From positions 1-59,793 of the forward strand of contig CALFUK010000080.1 in NCBI GenBank assembly GCA_937929945.1: a DNA stretch of 59,793 nucleotides. The letters run 5' to 3'. This DNA is from an uncultured Saprospiraceae bacterium (GTDB taxonomy: Bacteria; Bacteroidota; Bacteroidia; Chitinophagales; Saprospiraceae). Positions 3,572 to 57,405 of this stretch are shown one piece after another (the first letter of the stretch is position 1; the number at the start of each line of letters is the position of its first letter). A program made the position numbers and the translations under genes. Under the pieces are notes generated by a model that was not told the DNA's origin, did not search any database, and saw nothing but the letters and a program-made list of their open reading frames with translations.

Positions 3572-3603
3572 GGTTAATTATCCACTTGGATGGTTTAGTT
3601 ATT
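3572..3603 (-). repeat. 32-nt motif, copy 1, upstream of the MORN lipoprotein gene
   Basis: Read on the minus strand this copy is a recognisable variant of copies at 3615-3646 and 57374-57405, all in the same orientation relative to the downstream lipoprotein gene. The shared core reads TAA..ACA(C/T)CCAA followed by T.GAT.ATT. It could be a regulator-binding site or a small dispersed repeat. The rest of the 3530-3843 gap holds only the second copy and the terminator at 3779-3813. Confidence 0.45.
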
Positions 3604-3614
3604 CAGGCCAACTA

Positions 3615-3646
3615 TTTTAAATATCCATTTGGGTGTCTTAGTTATC
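3615..3646 (-). repeat. 32-nt motif, copy 2, upstream of the MORN lipoprotein gene
   Basis: Second copy of the motif. On the minus strand it begins GATAACTAAGACACCCAAAT and is closer to the distant copy at 57374-57405 than to its immediate neighbour. It shares TAAGACACCCAA exactly with the distant copy. Confidence 0.5.
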
Positions 3647-3843: not shown

Positions 3844-6800
3844 CTATTTCTTTTCTTGTTCGAATACCCTCAGATTTCCATTAGAACATCCTTCGATGAA
3901 CGCATGGAACTCAGCACCTTGGACAACTTCAAATCCAGGATTTAACTCAATGCATGTGCCAGCTGTATAGTCTGTCACTGATTGATTCACTAATCCAGTA
4001 GAAGTAATCTCGATGCCAGCTTCATATCTACCTGGAGCTACAGGTACATCAGGTATATCGAGGAAGTCCACACAGCAGCTTTGTACTTCTAACTGAGCTC
4101 CGACGATATCGATACTGGCACAGACTCCTTGAGCTCTATACGCTGATCTGATATTGAATGCCGTCGATGTACCTACAGTAAACTGAGCTAAGTCAAATGT
4201 TGCTGGATTATACACGATAGAATGTATGATGTAAGCACCAGGTGTATTGATCACAAAGTTAGGACTGGTACTTCGAGCTTCCAGTACGAATCCTGCAGAT
4301 GTCAGCAAGAACTCCTGTACGAATCCAGCTGGTACATTAGCACTTACAGAGTTAGCAGACACTAATACTCCAGAAGATGCATCTATACAGCCATTTGTCG
4401 TAGCAGAATTCATAGCGCCAGCCTGCGCTAAGCAGCACTCTGATAATGATAGCCCTAATCCAGCTACCAGTAGGTCTGCACATGCACCACTATCATCGAT
4501 CAGTGCTAATACTTCAGTAGCCGTAGTGGTACCAAGCTGTACACCTGATAAATCAAGTGTATTCGGATCATAGACTAATGAATGTATGGTGTAGTCACCA
4601 GCTGAGCTGAATGCAAATGTCGCTCTTGTAGCGTCAGTCGCATCGATGGCTTCCAGTACTAATCCGGTACCCGATGTTAATACATATACGATCTCGTAGC
4701 CAGCAGGGACGACAGCTGTGCCATCAGGCGTAAATGATCTAGTAACACTTCCACCTGGGACGATACATCCACCTAAACTACCAGGTAAGAAATTACCAGC
4801 AGTAAGAGCAGGACATAAGACAATCTCAGTCGGATCATTATCAGTGACCTGTGCACCTCCACCTTGAGGCGTTGCTACTACTACCGCAGTATTGGTATAG
4901 CTAGCTGATACATTATTATCAGTACAAACATAGGTGATAACCTGACCAGCTATCATCGTACCTAAGTTATTGTTACAAGCAGGTGCTAATGCATCTGATA
5001 CAGTAACGTTAGTTAGGGTCGAACTTCCAGTGTTAGTCACGATGATCTCGAATTCTGCAGGATCACCAGGGTTGATAGTCTGGCTATCAGTACCATCCAA
5101 AGCTCTTTTGACGATATCGATACCAGGATTCAATACATTGATGGTGGTCGGGTCATCATCAGATACTTGTGGATCTCCATTAGTCGGCGTCGCTGTGACC
5201 ATAGCTATATTGATATAGTCAGCAGTTACACCAGGATCACTACATGTATAGTTGAATGATCCTCCAGGGAGTATTTGTGCAATTGAAATATTACACGCTC
5301 CAGCTTCTGGATCTGTCACAGAGATATTAGTCAATGGAATATTTCCATTATTGGTGACTGTAATGTCAAACTGTGCTGTTCCTCCAGAGACGACATCCTG
5401 GCTATCAGTGCCATCAGTCGCTCTCTTGTCGATCACGATCGAAGGATTAGGTAGGATATCTACAAAATCTTGATCCGGTACATTTCCTGCAGGAGGTACT
5501 GTTACATTATTGATCGTATTATCATTCGGGCCATCTACATCAGATACAGAGTTATATCCAGCTGGATCAGTCTCCGTGATAGTGTAGACACCTGGTGACA
5601 CGAGGAATGCATAGTCCCCATTCATATCAGTAGCCGTAGTCACTGTGATACCATTAGCATCAGTCAATGTGATCACCGCTCCAGCGATAGGCTGGTCTGG
5701 TGCACCATCTCCGTCCGTATCTTCTTCTACTGTACCTGATACGATAGCAGGTCTCTCTTCTACGAAGTCTTGATTTGGCACGTTTCCACCGATGGCTACG
5801 CTACCAGTGATCATATCATCTGTAGGGCTTCCCTCCACATCACTCACCGTGCTGAATCCAGCTGGCTGGATCTCAGTGATAGTAAATGAACCAGGAGCAA
5901 CTTCAAATTCGTAATTACCATTCACATCAGTAGTCGTGGTCTGCATAGCTCCAGAACCATCTACGATACTGATGACAACACCAGGGATATTAACTTCTCC
6001 TGCGCCATCATTGTCAATGTCTTCAGATACATTACCAGAGACAGTCGCAGGTCTTTCGTCCACGAAGTCTTGATTAGGCATATTACCACCTAGAGGTACA
6101 GTACCCATGATCATGTTATCATTAGGACCATCAATATCAGTTACAGAAGTATATCCTGCAAGATCAGCCTCAGTAATAGTGTAAGCACCAGGAGCTACTA
6201 CGAAGCTATAGTTACCCATAGCATCAGTAAGAGCAGTCTGTGTCACACCAGCACCATCTACGATGGTAATCACTACATTTCCGATACCGATATCGCCAAT
6301 GTCATCATTATCTAAATCCTGAGATACATTACCAGAGACGACAGTCGGTCTTTCATCTACGAAGTCTTGGTTTGGCATGTTACCACCTAATGGTACAGTA
6401 TCCATAATGATATTATCAGTCGGCGCACCTTGAACGTCATCTACAGAAGTATATCCTGCAAGATCAGTCTCAGTAATGGTATAAGCACCAGGTGCTACTT
6501 CGAAACTATAGTTACCCATAGCATCAGTAAGAGCAGTCTGCGTGACACCCGCACCATCAACGATAGTGATAAGAACACCAGATAAGTCTACCTCACCTGC
6601 GTCATCATTATTAGTATCCTCAGATACATTACCAGAAACAACAGTCGGTCTTTCATCTACGAAGTCTTGGTCTGGCTCATTACCACCTGGAGCAACAGTA
6701 CCCATGATGGTATTATCAGTCGGCGAACCTTCCACATCATTTACAGAAGTGTAACCTGATAGGTCACCTTCAGTAATTGTGAATGGACCAGGTGTGACAG

Positions 6801-9800
6801 TGAAACTATAGTTACCCATAGCATCTGTCAAAGCCGTCTGAGTATTACCTGAAGAGTCATTAATTGTGATAAGTACTCCTGGTATAGGATCTTCTCCATC
6901 GTCATCATTATCAATATCTTCTAAGACAGTACCAGAGACCGTTGCTGGTTGCTCATCTACAAAATCATTCATTGGTACATTGCCACCTGGAGCAACAGTC
7001 CCTGTGACAACATTGTCATTAGCTCCATCAACATCAGATACAGAGTCGAATCCAGCAGGATCTGTCTCAGTGACAGTATATGGACCAGGCGCGACTGTGA
7101 ACATGTACATTCCAGTAGCGTCAGTCATGATAGTCTGAGATACCCCAGCTCCATCAACGACTACGATGACTGCGCCCACAATAGGCGTATCACCGACACC
7201 ATCACCATTAGTATCTTCCAGTACAGTACCAGAGATCTTGGCTGGTTGTTCGATAGGTGTATTGGTCGGATCATCTGTTCCTGGAGTCTGATTTACGTCA
7301 GCAGGATTAGAAGTATCAGAATCATCTTCTACGATTTGTCCAGCTGGATCTTCTCCAGTGACAGTCGCTTGATTATCTACAAAGCCAGCTGCTATATCTG
7401 CCGGAGTAATCATATATGTCGCCGTGGCTATACCTATCCCTCCTGGATTCAGGGTGGTAGGTGACACAGCAGAAGGTACTGGTAGCGCACCTGTACCTGT
7501 GAATTGTGCCATTGTCTCGGCAACAGCCACATCAGTCAGGATGACATCTCCGCAGTTCAGTGCTTCGTATGTGTAAGTTATTACGTCACCTGCAGAAGCG
7601 ACTTGGTCAGGACCTAGATCCAATACAGATGATTTAGTCAGAGATATACATGGAACCTTAATTTCAGTTGGATCCATATCCGTCACAGCTGCACTTCCGT
7701 CTACAGGGTCACCTGTCACTAAAGCTACATTCGTAAAGTCAGCTGTTACATTGGCAATCGTACAAGTATATGTTGAAGATTGACCCGGATTCAAGGTACC
7801 GATTATGCTATTATCACAATTAGGTGATAATGGGTCAGTCACTGTTATGTTGTCAAGGGTAATGCTTCCTGTATTCGTCACTGTGATTTCGAAGGTAGCT
7901 GTATTGCCTTCTAAGACATACTGTATGTCTGAACCATCAGTTGCGCTTTTGACGATTGAGATATTTGCTTCATTATCTATTGGTGTATTCGTAGGATCAT
8001 CTGGTCCACCTGTTTCATTCGTGTCAGCAGGATTAGATGTATCCGAATCATCTTCTACAGCTTGTCCAGCAGGATCGTCACCTACGACAGATGCTTGATT
8101 GTCTACGAAGCCAGCGTTAATGTCAGCTTGAGTAATCGCGTATGTAGCTATAGCTGTACCACTATTACCAGGGGCCAGCGTAGAAGGATTTACGGCTGAA
8201 GGATTTGGCAAATTGCCTGTACCTGTAAATAATGCTTGTACTTCTGTAATGTCTACATTAGTTAATGTCGCATTTCCACAATTAGTTACCGTATAAGAAT
8301 AGGTAATGATATCACCCATAGAGGCTACTCCATCAACACCTAAGTCCAGAGAAGAACCTTTCTCTAAGCTGATGCATGGTACAATCACTTCAGTAGGATC
8401 TGTAGCAGTGACAGCTGGTCCACCACCTACTGGATCACCAGTGACGTCAGCGACATTTGTAAAGTCCGCCATCACGTTATCTATCGTACACTGATAAGAT
8501 GTGGATTGACCTGGATTCAATGTTCCTATGGTGTTATCACATAGTGGAGCCTGAGGGTCAGTGACAGTCACATTATTAAGGACTACGTCACCATCATTGG
8601 TTACTGTGATATTGAATGTAGCTGTGTTTCCAGAAAGTACATACTGTACATCTGTACCGTCAGCTGCAGTTTTATCAATTGCGATACTTGGTACAAGTAC
8701 AACGACATCTGAAGGATCACTATCATTTAATTGCGGACTACCATCAGCAGGATTACCTGTGACAGAAGCCGTATTAGTAAAACTGGCAGTAACATTAGTC
8801 AAAGTACATTCGTACATAAACATATCACCAGCTGCTAAAGTGCCAATTGTAGCATCACAAATAGGAGCTTGTGGGTCACTTACAGTGACATTATTGAGAT
8901 CGATGTTTCCTGTATTCTCTACAATGATCTTATAGGTAGCATCACCACCTTGAATAACGTCTTGTGTATCTGAACCATCAATAGCACTCTTAGTAATTTT
9001 TATTCCGGGTACAATGTCGACTACGACATCAGTCGGATCAGTATCCGTAACTGCAGGTCCACCACTTGCTGGATCGCCAGTGACATCAGCCACATTCGTA
9101 AAGTCTGCTGTCACATTAGTCGCTGTACATGTGTATGTTACGACTTGTCCAGGAGTCATGGTCCCGATGGTATTGTTACATGATGTAGACAATGGATCAC
9201 TAACTGCTACATTATTTAGATCTACGTTACCGGTATTGGTTACGACGATTTCAAATGTTGCAGTACCGCCGAATGAGACATTCTGAGTATCAGAGCCATC
9301 TACAGCTCTCTTTACAATTTCTATGCTGGGAGCAGCACATGCGTCTATGTCAGATGATATGGTCCAAGCTTTATCAGCAGGAGTTTCACAAGTAGGAGCA
9401 TTTGCCAATAAGACTAAGCCACACTCTGCATCCACTGGTGCATTCACATATGTATCTACGCTTACATTAGCATTAGCTGGTGCTATACCAGCTTCGATAG
9501 CATCTGCACATCCATCACCATCACTATCTAAATCTCTAAAGTCAGGGGTGCCATCCATATCTGTATCTACAGGGGCAGTAGCACAAAGTCCTTGTAGTAC
9601 GCCACAGTTTTCACCATTGACGATCACATAGTTACCGTCACCATTATTATCTAATCGACAGTCTTCTAAAGTCAAGTTAATATCACAACATGCTTCTATT
9701 GCATCTGGGATACCATCATTGTCAGAATCTAAATCTAAGTAATCACAAATACCATCGCCATCTGTATCTGTGCAAGAAGCAATGCTTCCAGCTGTACAGC

Positions 9801-19635: not shown

Positions 19636-20622
19636 ATGTCCAGAGTACTTACACTTAGAGATTCGCTACGAGAAGCCATGTCAGAAGAGATGAGAAGAGA
19701 TCCAGATGTCTTTCTCATGGGAGAGGAGGTAGCCGAGTATAATGGAGCCTATAAAGTGAGTAAAGGTATGCTGGATGAGTTTGGTCCAGAGCGAGTGATC
19801 GATACGCCGATTACAGAGTTAGGTTTTGCGGGAGTCGGTGTCGGAGCCGCGATGAACGGACTCCGCCCGATCATCGAATTCATGACTTGGAATTTTGCAG
19901 TCTTGGCTTTTGATCAGATTATCAATAATGCAGCGAAGACGCTTTCACAGTCTGCCGGCCAGTATCGATGTCCCATTGTATTCAGGGGTCCATCAGGTGC
20001 AGCAGGGCAGCTAGCCCAGCAGCACTCGCAGACCTTCGAATCATGGATGGCTAACTGTCCAGGGCTCAAAGTCATCTCCATCGTAGATCCTGCTGATAGT
20101 AAGGGGCTGCTAAAGTCCGCCATCAGAGATAATGATCCTGTGTGCTTCATGGAGTCAGAGATGATGTACGGCCTGAAAGGTGAAGTACCTGAAGGTGAGT
20201 ATCTAGTACCTATCGGTAAGGCTGTGGTCAGAAAAGAAGGGACAGATGTCACCATCGTCTCTTACAATAAGTCCATGGAACTCGTCAAAGAAGCAGCAAC
20301 CAAGCTGGAGGCAGAAGGCATCAGTGCCGAAGTAATCGATCTGCGTACCATACGCCCGCTGGATATAGATACCATCGTCACATCCGTGAAGAAAACGAAT
20401 CGGCTGGTGGTCGTAGATGAGTGCTGGCCCTTTGCTGGTGTCTCCGCTGAGGTAGCCTACGAAGTACAGAAATATGCATTTGATTATCTGGATGCACCAG
20501 TCACCAGAGTCAATGCTGCTGATACATCACTGCCATACGCAGCCACCTTAGTGGAGGAGTACATGCCTAATGCAGCTAAGATCATTAAGGCAGTGAAAGA
20601 GGTAAGTTATGCGGGAGTGTAG
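19636..20622 (+). CDS. pdhB: Pyruvate dehydrogenase E1 component, beta subunit
   Basis: Beta subunit of the thiamine-diphosphate E1 that decarboxylates pyruvate in the pyruvate dehydrogenase complex. 328 aa, a standard length. Motifs: LRDSLREAMSEEMRRD, MGEEVAEYNGAYKVSKG (Glu that activates ThDP), TPITELGFAGVGVGAAMNG, EFMTWNFAVLAFDQIINNAAK, and the C-terminal transketolase domain VVVDECWPFAGVSAEV. The alpha subunit and E2 are not in this window; in many Bacteroidota pdhB is detached from pdhA/pdhC. Transcribed alone from the right arm of the 16-20 kb cluster. The gene-free repeat block starts 28 bp after its stop. Confidence 0.96.
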   Translation: MSRVLTLRDSLREAMSEEMRRDPDVFLMGEEVAEYNGAYKVSKGMLDEFGPERVIDTPITELGFAGVGVGAAMNGLRPIIEFMTWNFAVLAFDQIINNAAKTLSQSAGQYRCPIVFRGPSGAAGQLAQQHSQTFESWMANCPGLKVISIVDPADSKGLLKSAIRDNDPVCFMESEMMYGLKGEVPEGEYLVPIGKAVVRKEGTDVTIVSYNKSMELVKEAATKLEAEGISAEVIDLRTIRPLDIDTIVTSVKKTNRLVVVDECWPFAGVSAEVAYEVQKYAFDYLDAPVTRVNAADTSLPYAATLVEEYMPNAAKIIKAVKEVSYAGV

Positions 20623-20649: not shown

Positions 20650-20914
20650 AGTCATCCTGAATTTATTTCAGGATCTGGCCTTGTGCGTAGGGATGATTCT
20701 TGTACTCATCGAATATAAATGGCTTGTTACAACCCACTCCACATGGCTTACCAATCCCTGACGGGCTTAGCAATCCCAGCAGCTTCTATTTAAAGAGCAT
20801 CAGTCGGTAGACTTATTTTAATTAAAAAATGACGCCAAATTTCAAATGGGTTTGTTTGCTTAATCTGGTACCGTGTACCAGACTATCGATATTTGATGCC
20901 GCTGGCATCTTGGG
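20650..20914. repeat. 265-bp intergenic direct repeat, copy A
   Basis: Starts with a REP-like hairpin (GTCATCCTGAA, 5-nt loop, TTCAGGAT; 20651-20676) and ends with the small palindrome GATGCCGCTGGCATC. It is about 90% identical by eye to copy B 334 bp downstream. It includes a conserved stretch CCAAATTTCAAATGGGTTTG and a variable hairpin near its end (GGTACCGTGTACC here, GGTGCCATGTACC in B). No open frame covers it on either strand. Confidence 0.85.
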
Positions 20915-20983
20915 GGTATGCATACAGTTTCATTGCGAAAAAAATTAGTAAAATTAACTGGAAGCCTGTTCAATATAGCGTAT

Positions 20984-21249
20984 AGTCATCCTGAATTTAT
21001 TTCAGGATCTGGCCTTGTGCGTAGGGATGATTCTTGTACTCATCGAATATAAATGGCTTATTTTTTAACCCACCCACATGGCTTACCAATCCCTGACGGG
21101 CTTAGCAATCCGAGCAGCTTCTTTATAAAGAGCATCAGTCGTTAGACTTATTTTAATCAAAAAAAAACGCCAAATTTCAAATGGGTTTGTTTGCTTAATC
21201 AGGTGCCATGTACCAGGCTATCGATATTTGATGCCGCTGGCATCTTGGG
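20984..21249. repeat. 265-bp intergenic direct repeat, copy B
   Basis: Second copy, same orientation, separated from copy A by 69 bp of unique AT-rich DNA. Differences are scattered substitutions plus a few 1-3 base indels, mainly in the A-rich middle. It keeps the REP-like hairpin at 20985-21010 and the terminal GATGCCGCTGGCATC palindrome. Confidence 0.85.
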
Positions 21250-21449
21250 TTTTTCAAATAAATAGAGCATTTCTTAATCCGAAAGTCTTTCAAAATGAGG
21301 GGACCTCGGCTGCGCCCGAGGATGGGACTGAACGATCTGCTTGCATAATCTAAGATCCTAAATGGGTCTTAGATAGTGAGGGGGCAGACCCTCTGTGGTC
21401 GGGGTAGGAGGCAAAATCGTAAAGGAACGAAAGCCACCTCTCCAAGCCC
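21250..21449. other. Gene-free, locally GC-rich stretch with hairpins
   Basis: Between repeat copy B and the terminal hairpin, no coding frame is supported. Visible are a GC hairpin (CCTCGG...CCGAGG, 21304-21321), a second imperfect hairpin around CTAAGATCC...GGGTCTTAG (about 21350-21373) and a G-rich run near 21379-21412. It may be the remnant of a repeat or a structured RNA; nothing decides between these. Confidence 0.4.
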
Positions 21450-21475
21450 AGATGCTGAAATAAATTCAGCATGAC
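21450..21475 (-). repeat. REP-like hairpin, inverted orientation
   Basis: On the minus strand GTCATGCTGAA, 5-nt loop, TTCAGCATCT. It is the same element as the hairpins opening copies A and B, but a C-to-G change in the left arm is matched by G-to-C in the right arm, so pairing is kept. It lies 43 bp downstream of the DUF6438 gene stop and may also serve as its transcript end. Confidence 0.75.
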
Positions 21476-21517
21476 TCGCACATTTATGTTAGTAGATTGA
21501 TGTCTGTAGCGGATTCA

Positions 21518-22258
21518 CTATCGCAATGCCGCCTTGGTGTTAAATTCAGCAGATTCTACTCCTGCATGCGCTTGCACTTTATGCAGCATCATCTGGGGAT
21601 TGATCAGCTTCGTGTTATACTGCACGATCCAGGTCTTCTTATCTTGGGTCAAGGGCTTCTGAACATACATCTGGTACTCTCTGAATTCTCGCATCCAGCG
21701 GCTGATAATGGTTCCTGCCTTGAATTGGATGATGAGTTCTCTTTCTACGATTTGCTTTTCTTCCTCTTCTTCTTCCTCTGCTTCGTCGCCTTCAGCAAGG
21801 GCAGCTGGTGGTTCCAGAGATTTCCAGCCTTCAGCCTGCGCTATTTTTTCGAGCATCGATTGTAACTCCAGTAAGACTTCTGGTCTGCGCTCTTTCCCTT
21901 TCACTGTCTTGGAGAGGCCTTTATTAGTGTGAGCTATGGTGACTAGAGGCAGGTCTGCCACATCACTTTTATAATCTTCATTGAGTGCGAAGAAGTTTAC
22001 CTCGGCCAGCTTCTTAGCTATCGCCTCTAATTCAGATTTCTTGATTTTCATCTTGTGCTTACCCACTTTCTCAGTGAAGCGCTCACCATCATATATAGCA
22101 TTTCCTTCATTGTCAATGTTTAGTGTGTATACAGGGCAGCTGCCAAAGCAGGCACCTTTATGCATATTCACTTGAAAATCTTCATTGATTAAATTCTTCG
22201 TCGTACTACAACTGATTACTGTCAAGATAAGTAATCCCGTCAAAAGTCTCATATTCAT
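21518..22258 (-). CDS. DUF6438-type lipoprotein
   Basis: A 246-aa lipoprotein (MNMRLLTGLLILTVISCST, lipidated Cys at about 17). The part to about residue 145 has the DUF6438 pattern: GACFGSCPVYTLNIDNEGNAI with two close cysteines, YDGERFTEKVGKHK, then NFFALNEDY and the D.PLVTIAHTNKG strand. A very acidic linker (GDEAEEEEEEEKQ) leads to a second small domain of about 85 residues (IIQFKAGTIISRWMREFREY) not normally part of the domain. Function of the family is unknown; probably periplasm-facing. Its upstream neighbour, 21 bp away, is the metalloprotease gene, so the two are likely one transcript. Confidence 0.75.
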   Translation of the reverse strand: MNMRLLTGLLILTVISCSTTKNLINEDFQVNMHKGACFGSCPVYTLNIDNEGNAIYDGERFTEKVGKHKMKIKKSELEAIAKKLAEVNFFALNEDYKSDVADLPLVTIAHTNKGLSKTVKGKERRPEVLLELQSMLEKIAQAEGWKSLEPPAALAEGDEAEEEEEEEKQIVERELIIQFKAGTIISRWMREFREYQMYVQKPLTQDKKTWIVQYNTKLINPQMMLHKVQAHAGVESAEFNTKAALR

Positions 22259-57373: not shown

Positions 57374-57405
57374 AATTAATCATCAACTTGGGTGTCTTAC
57401 TTATC
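57374..57405 (-). repeat. 32-nt motif, copy 3, upstream of the TlpA-like gene
   Basis: On the minus strand it begins GATAAGTAAGACACCCAAGT, 45-76 bp upstream of the ATG at 57329. It is nearly identical over its first 18 bases to the copy at 3615-3646 and has the same orientation relative to the gene. Confidence 0.5.

What the first reader, a model, noticed from the sequence alone, without database searches (positions are those of the whole stretch)
20650..21475. Paired 265-bp intergenic repeats bounded by REP-like hairpins with compensatory changes
Two direct copies (334-bp period) with no coding potential, each starting with a hairpin GTCATCCTGAA/TTCAGGAT. A third, inverted hairpin at 21450-21475 has C-to-G and G-to-C in opposite arms, keeping the stem. 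Paired changes point to selection for the structure, or to REP/RAYT-type element families. The block also ends in a conserved GATGCC-GCT-GGCATC palindrome, so the unit may be a mobile composite (REPIN-like) or an RNA.
Basis: partly seen in the sequence, partly recalled or inferred. Interest (0 to 1): 0.5.

Follow-up and report, generated by a model that had tools for sequence, protein, structure and literature searches.

The report
CGTC-type REP hairpins in mosaic repeats
The paired repeats are a small cluster of a known class of short DNA hairpins scattered through this bacterium's genome, here built into a patchwork of repeated pieces behind two genes; what copies these hairpins is still unknown.

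Summary
Two direct copies (94-98% identical) each open with an 8-bp-stem hairpin; a third, inverted hairpin at 21452-21475 carries a compensated C:G to G:C change. The hairpin is not local: 52 exact copies in the genome, 99 at up to 3 mismatches against 2 for the reversed-pattern control; 62 of 296 genomes sampled from the phylum have it. Stem, loop and covarying pairs fit the CGTC-tagged REPs of Di Nocera 2013 (PMC3733652), not the RAYT-linked GTAG class; tag and tail fit less well. This draft genome has no Y1 transposase hit, so REPIN/RAYT fails as stated. The 265-bp unit is modules A and B; A, B and C recur on contig C142 as B-A-C, like neisserial mosaic elements. Most neighbouring copies are head-to-tail (45 of 54 pairs) and behind genes: 0 of 25 classifiable clusters lie between divergent genes, against 28 of 85 other gaps. 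Two same-genus genomes lack the block at this spot. New member of a known kind; the copying enzyme is the open question.

The parts
20651..20674 (+). CGTC-type REP hairpin 1 (tag GTC, 8-bp stem, loop TTTAT; tail CT follows)
20985..21008 (+). CGTC-type REP hairpin 2
21452..21475 (-). CGTC-type REP hairpin 3, inverted, stem pair 3 G:C instead of C:G; with hairpin 2 a head-head heterodimer in Di Nocera's terms
20650..20810 (+). module A, copy 1 (begins at hairpin 1); 87% identical to C142:16242-16402 and 89% to C142:8208-8364
20984..21145 (+). module A, copy 2 (begins at hairpin 2); 89-90% identical to two places on C142
20742..20777 (+). 36-nt dispersed element inside module A copy 1 (CATGGCTTACC...AGCAATCCC); also in arrays on C90 and C33, and on C60 and C91
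21077..21112 (+). the same 36-nt element inside module A copy 2; matches also on C37 and in the relative G025
20815..20913 (+). module B, copy 1, with the GATGCC-GCT-GGCATC palindrome at 20895-20909
21150..21248 (+). module B, copy 2, palindrome at 21230-21244 followed by a T-run (the one terminator-like site found; 0.9 expected by shuffling)
21294..21487 (+). module C, ends 12 bp past inverted hairpin 3; 76-85% identical to three places on C142
20984..21476 (.). hairpin-bounded composite A-(B)-C, 493 bp; RNA fold z -4.8
19636..20622 (+). flanking gene, transketolase pyrimidine-binding and C-terminal domains (dehydrogenase E1 beta type, by recall); ends 29 bp before hairpin 1
21518..22258 (-). 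flanking convergent gene, DUF6438; ends 43 bp after hairpin 3

Best explanation
The block is a cluster of three CGTC-type REP hairpins (two direct, one inverted with a different stem type) that bound and interleave with repeat modules A, B and C. It is an intergenic mosaic of the same general build as neisserial NIMEs. Shown: a dispersed hairpin family, a covarying stem pair, location behind genes, and local head-to-tail arrays whose spacers are mostly alike within an array and unrelated between arrays. Inferred: the hairpins are non-autonomous repeat DNA that was once spread by an enzyme recognising the hairpin in single-stranded DNA, so changes survive only when compensated. Copies then multiplied locally by tandem duplication (slippage or unequal recombination between hairpins) and were kept only where harmless, behind genes. 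The enzyme is not identified; in this draft genome neither a Y1 nor an IS110 transposase was found.
For: 52 exact and 99 copies at up to 3 mismatches, 2 in the reversed control. 60 distinct hairpins from this genome and four relatives: pair 7:23, left free by the search pattern, has both sides changed in 30 of 60 rows and is unpaired in 2; covariation score 0.202 against 0.057 in shuffles (0 of 500 as high) and at most 0.068 when slid. 62 of 296 sampled phylum genomes carry it, reversed control 0. The text of PMC3733652 on CGTC REPs: stem 8-9 bp starting AT, loop 4-5, tag often changed, heterodimers common, no linked transposase, Bacteroidetes among the phyla. Context 13 uni, 12 conv, 0 div of 25 clusters, against 48, 9 and 28 of 85 other gaps of 50 bp or more, p=0.0004. 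Spacer identity 0.77 within arrays, 0.38 between. Modules on C142 in a different order. Absent at this locus in two same-genus genomes.
Against: The base before GTC is C in only 13 of 54 copies of this genome (A in 28), though in 22 of 24 of the same-genus G002. The tail is mostly CT+N, not the published CCA. The published CGTC families are mainly head-head dimers with rare clusters; here 45 of 54 neighbouring pairs are head-to-tail (strand strings). Two of five structure measures do not beat the shuffles (pairs with change on both sides 2, reached by 246 of 500; further pair types 6, reached by 147 of 500), since only two of eight pairs could vary. Movement itself was not shown: no filled/empty pair with clean ends was found. 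Genomes with 5 or more hairpins have Y1 genes more often (34 of 39 against 175 of 257, p=0.014, kinship not corrected), so a past Y1 role is not excluded. Another inverted repeat of module B folds well in copy 1 but not in copy 2.
Confidence: 0.82

Rival explanations
1. A REPIN or REP/RAYT system proper: hairpins mobilised by a REP-associated tyrosine (Y1) transposase of the host.
For: REP-like hairpins, inverted pairs, and Y1_Tnp in 45 of 60 relatives and 209 of 296 phylum genomes; weak positive association of many hairpins with Y1 presence.
Against: No Y1_Tnp hit in this genome, and none for four other genomes with 9-39 hairpins (G306, G138, G248, G229, read from their absence in the match list; counts). 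Fourteen Y1 places fetched in G002, G038 and G018 had no exact hairpin nearby, only matches at 3-4 mismatches. 36 Y1 loci in 25 hairpin-rich genomes: one with an exact hairpin (L236), 0.51 hairpins expected; two more (L209, L235) with matches at up to 2 mismatches. No GTAG tag.
Confidence: 0.12
2. A functional RNA element: 3'-UTR hairpins that stabilise mRNA ends or end transcription of the two convergent genes.
For: Position 29 and 43 bp from two convergent stop codons; no classifiable cluster between divergent genes; strong RNA fold of the composite, z -4.8.
Against: No Rfam match above chance; no T-run after the REP hairpins; terminator-like sites are at the shuffle level (1 found, 0.9 expected); the same intergenic space in two same-genus genomes has no match to the block; part of the fold score comes from the inverted hairpin pair itself.
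Confidence: 0.2
3. A simple local duplication with no wider meaning.
For: The two copies in the window are 94-98% identical and adjacent; arrays elsewhere look like local tandem duplications.
Against: The hairpin is in 32 fetched clusters of the genome and modules A, B and C are on contig C142.
Confidence: 0.04
4. Target or recombination sites for another mobile element (as dRS3 is for a neisserial filamentous phage), kept because an integrase uses them.
For: The dRS3 precedent (PMC3898611, passages); a 23S_rRNA_IVP gene sits inside an array on C199.
Against: No IS110-type transposase in 12 of 20 hairpin-bearing genomes searched, this one included; 25 IS110 loci gave one with a hairpin pair nearby (L349); of 30 IVP loci only C199 itself had exact hairpins, two others (L313, L332) had matches at up to 2 mismatches.
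Confidence: 0.1

Closest known systems
CGTC-tagged REPs (Di Nocera, De Gregorio and Rocco 2013, PMC3733652)
   Same: GTC before a stem that starts AT; 8-bp stem and 5-nt loop; complementary stem variants; head-head heterodimers occur; intergenic, behind genes; no linked transposase; Bacteroidetes among the phyla named.
   Different: In this genome the first tag base is most often A, the tail is CT+N rather than CCA, and head-to-tail arrays prevail over head-head dimers.
dRS3 and neisserial intergenic mosaic elements, NIMEs (PMC3898611; dRS3 is a CGTC-1 family in PMC3733652)
   Same: Short hairpin repeats interleaved with longer repeat modules (30-160 bp there, about 100-190 bp here) in intergenic arrays of 200-2700 bp.
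   Different: dRS3 pattern ATTCCC-N8-GGGAAT, almost 700 copies and a known phage target; here other sequences, up to 99 matches, no integrase known.
REPINs with RAYTs (GTAG REPs)
   Same: Hairpin repeats, inverted pairs, stem variants, genome-wide.
   Different: No GTAG tag, no Y1 transposase hit in the genome, no enrichment of the hairpins beside Y1 genes of relatives.

Membership tests
CGTC-tagged REP superfamily | unpaired terminal CGTC motif (TGTC or CCTC in many) | tested here: inconclusive
   GTC was required by the exact pattern; at up to 3 mismatches most copies keep it. The base before it is C in 13 of 54, A 28, T 10, G 3 in this genome; C in 22 of 24 in G002.
CGTC-tagged REP superfamily | stem of 8-9 bp with complementary AT at positions 1 and 2 | tested here: met
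   8-bp stem ATNC(T/C)GAA; folds, pairs (AT was fixed by the search pattern).
CGTC-tagged REP superfamily | loop of 4-5 nt | tested here: met
   5-nt loop, mainly CTTGT, TTTAT, CTCGT (where the pattern fixed 5 nt; allowed 3-12 and gave almost only 5).
CGTC-tagged REP superfamily | short unpaired tail, mostly CCA | tested here: not met
   Tail CTG 35, CTT 9, CTC 7, CTA 2, TTG 1 of 54; the paper says most, not all, fit CCA.
CGTC-tagged REP superfamily | dispersed copies, mostly intergenic and behind genes | tested here: met
   99 matches at up to 3 mismatches; 0 of 25 clusters between divergent genes; one of these lies inside a 658-aa ORF (L292).
CGTC-tagged REP superfamily | no association with transposase genes | tested here: met
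   but a weak genome-level association with Y1 presence
CGTC-tagged REP superfamily | mainly head-head dimers, clusters rare | tested here: not met
   45 head-to-tail, 7 head-head, 2 tail-tail of 54 neighbouring pairs, counted from the strand strings; Neisseria and Wolbachia are the published exceptions for clusters.
REPIN/RAYT (GTAG REPs) | GTAG tag | tested here: not met
REPIN/RAYT (GTAG REPs) | Y1 transposase gene in the genome, flanked by the repeats | tested here: not met
   (0 hits; draft of 211 contigs, 99.77% complete); for relatives
NIME-like mosaic | hairpin repeats interleaved with several longer repeat families whose order varies | tested here: met
   window A-B-A-B-C, C142 B-A-C-C and B-A-C
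NIME-like mosaic | hairpin serves as integrase or recombination target | not testable with these tools
   needs strain comparison or experiment

The most novel reading that the evidence does not exclude
CGTC-type hairpins spread and stay structurally intact in this phylum without any HUH (Y1) transposase, by a mobilising enzyme not yet recognised; the composites bounded by inverted hairpins are its larger products.
Probability: 0.2. Interest if true: 0.6.

Novelty: new member of a known kind. Interest (0 to 1): 0.32.

Why it matters
The 2013 paper found no transposase for CGTC REPs, and one full-text search for later work listed a single paper, in which the passage search found 'CGTC' once, in its reference list. 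This genome and four others hold 9 to 56 intact hairpins with no Y1 transposase hit; this one and three of the four also gave no IS110 hit. They are good places to look for the real mobiliser. The head-to-tail arrays and mosaic modules also show how short hairpins may seed larger intergenic repeats.

Tried and rejected
RAYT link: not found for this genome and not seen beside Y1 genes of relatives above chance. L209 (G145) has hairpins at up to 2 mismatches on both sides of an IS200-like gene; I read it as an insertion into a repeat array, one case only.

Four-helix-bundle (PF05635) partner: suggested by the C199 array. Of the 30 loci returned (of a longer match list), only C199 itself had exact hairpins and two others matches at up to 2 mismatches; rejected as a general partner.

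IS110: no hit here; 25 loci gave one with a hairpin pair; rejected as a general mobiliser.

Rfam: one match far below its gathering score. Literature by letters: searches listed 6 and 20 (of 24) papers, unrelated by title. The search for related loci in genome contigs confirmed no relative, so the organism has no name here; Bacteroidota is inferred from a Por_Secre_tail match just below its cut-off and a SusC/TonB-like protein (recall).

Clean empty site: not obtained. In G001 the same intergenic space holds an unrelated 101-bp array, in G002 other sequence.

Full report
What is there. The intergenic space between a transketolase-domain gene (19636-20622, +) and a convergent DUF6438 gene (21518-22258, -) holds two direct copies of about 270 bp, 94-98% identical, 334-335 bp apart, and a third inverted hairpin. 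The hairpins fold as single-stranded DNA with an 8-bp stem and 5-nt loop, z -3.5 to -4.1. The pattern has no chance match in 100 shuffles of the window.

A genome-wide family. In the draft genome (5.07 Mb, 211 contigs) the loose pattern has 55 matches. The 26-nt pattern has 52 exact and 99 matches at up to 3 mismatches, against 2 for the reversed pattern. Several clusters lie within a few hundred bases of a contig end, so the count is probably low.

Covariation. Of 97 hairpins (54 of this genome, 24 of G002, 16 of G038, 2 of G018, 1 of G039; the 2 rows of G005 dropped), 60 are distinct. 99.6% of cells pair. Pair 7:23 changes on both sides in 30 of 60 rows (C:G 28, T:A 17, G:C 10, G:T 2, A:T 1, unpaired 2); pair 9:21 in 6. 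The covariation score and the share of cells paired exceed all 500 shuffles; the number of pairs changed on both sides (2) and of further pair types (6) do not (reached by 246 and 147 of 500). The search pattern left pair 7:23 free, allowed T/C against A/G at 9:21, and fixed the other six pairs, which therefore say nothing.

Distribution. 6 of 60 relatives (own genome included) have exact matches: the same-genus G002 has 23, as singles or head-head pairs in the stretches read; G038 of another family of the order has 20, partly in arrays. In the phylum sample 62 of 296 genomes (own included) have matches, up to 83 each; the reversed control is 0 in every row.

What known family. PMC3733652 (abstract, sections 5, 14, 15, part 1 of 2 of section 17, and passages; figures not held) describes CGTC-tagged REPs by the tag, stems of 8-9 bp starting AT, loops of 4-5, stem variants forming heterodimers, and no linked transposase, and names Bacteroidetes. 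The hairpin meets stem, loop, dispersal and lack of transposase; the tag's first base is loose here, the tail differs, and arrays replace dimers. It is not the GTAG/RAYT class.

Transposase tests. No Y1_Tnp hit in this genome, while 5 of 14 control genomes ring. Of 39 genomes with 5 or more hairpins, 34 have a Y1 match and 5 do not (this genome 56 hairpins, G306 39, G138 27, G248 27, G229 9; the last four are read from their absence in the match list, as most no-match genomes were not printed). Of the other 257, 175 have Y1 (p=0.014, kinship not corrected). That weak association speaks against a clean 'no Y1' reading. Close to Y1 genes the hairpins are not enriched: 36 loci with about 1 kb each side, one exact hairpin (L236), 0.51 expected, and two loci (L209, L235) with matches at up to 2 mismatches. 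The 36 were picked by eye from the places one search printed, not from all Y1 genes. 12 of 20 genomes searched, this one included, have no IS110 hit.

Arrays and place. Thirty-four places were fetched. By a two-mismatch rule 32 of them hold 86 hairpins (L301 and L302 gave none); 10 are single. Counting the strand strings by hand gives 45 head-to-tail, 7 head-head and 2 tail-tail neighbouring pairs. The rule misses some stem types: on C32 and C169 one search shows more inverted neighbours, so head-to-tail is slightly overcounted. Spacers are on average 0.77 identical within arrays (47 comparisons, single arrays as low as 0.42) and 0.38 between the first spacers of 19 arrays (171 comparisons, highest 0.67): tandem growth is local. 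Of 25 clusters with ORFs called on both sides, 13 lie between same-direction genes, 12 between convergent genes and none between divergent genes; 7 clusters could not be classed. Other gaps of 50 bp or more in the same DNA are 48, 9 and 28 (p=0.0004). Genes here are mechanical ORFs of 90 aa or more. One of the 13 (L292) has its hairpin inside a 658-aa ORF without a Pfam match, and three clusters (L290, L298, L300) overlap or enclose an ORF of 92-151 aa.

Mosaic. Module A (20650-20810, 20984-21145), B (20815-20913, 21150-21248) and C (21294-21487) occur on contig C142 as B-A-C-C and B-A-C. A starts at a hairpin and C ends 12 bp past an inverted one, so A-C is bounded by inverted hairpins three times in this genome. 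Among 60 relatives (own included) only the hairpin and the 36-nt element inside A matched outside this genome (G002, G025, G038); at most 8 candidates per genome were scored, so weak copies may be missed. The build resembles NIMEs (PMC3898611, passages).

Age. G001 and G002 of the same genus keep the two convergent genes, but their intergenic space gave no blastn match to the block; G001 instead holds an unrelated tandem array of 101-bp units. The block is therefore lineage-specific here.

Mechanism. I commit to non-autonomous hairpin DNA kept in shape by an enzyme acting in trans on the folded single strand, followed by local tandem growth and loss wherever it would hurt a gene. Family resemblance, arrays and place are shown; the enzyme and movement are inferred. 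An RNA role at gene ends remains possible: the composite folds well as RNA (z -4.8), but terminator-like sites are at chance level (1 against 0.9).

Noticed in passing
G000 C90:38246-38822 (L075) and C33:61312-61827 (L076): Other intergenic-looking arrays (periods about 180 and 160 bp) with the CATGGCTTACC...AGCAATCCC element and a GAGATCGGTGAGCTC...AGATCGCTGAGCT element; each has two half-repeats differing by ACC/AGC, and by eye the two elements look like reverse-complement relatives.
   Followed up: partly
G000 C199:365-1290 (L298): The only 23S_rRNA_IVP (PF05635) match in this genome sits inside a hairpin array; 29 such loci in other genomes have no exact hairpin nearby.
   Followed up: yes
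L174, about 768-1317 (G001): At the orthologous intergenic space a same-genus genome holds a different 101-bp tandem array with its own inverted repeats; the spot may tolerate repeats in general.
   Followed up: partly
G000 hairpin arrays (L273, L280, L281, L283, L284, L289, L300): Array periods gather near 42-43 and 84-88 bp in unrelated arrays; no explanation tested.
   Followed up: no
window 5458-7251: In-register DNA repeats of about 297-300 bp (six copies), likely a coding repeat of about 100 aa (reading frame not checked).
   Followed up: no
window 3574-3603, 3617-3646, 57376-57405: A 30-nt repeat in three copies, 80-83% alike, two close together and one 54 kb away.
   Followed up: no
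L292:3071-3094 (G000 C160): A hairpin copy inside a 658-aa ORF without a Pfam match.
   Followed up: no
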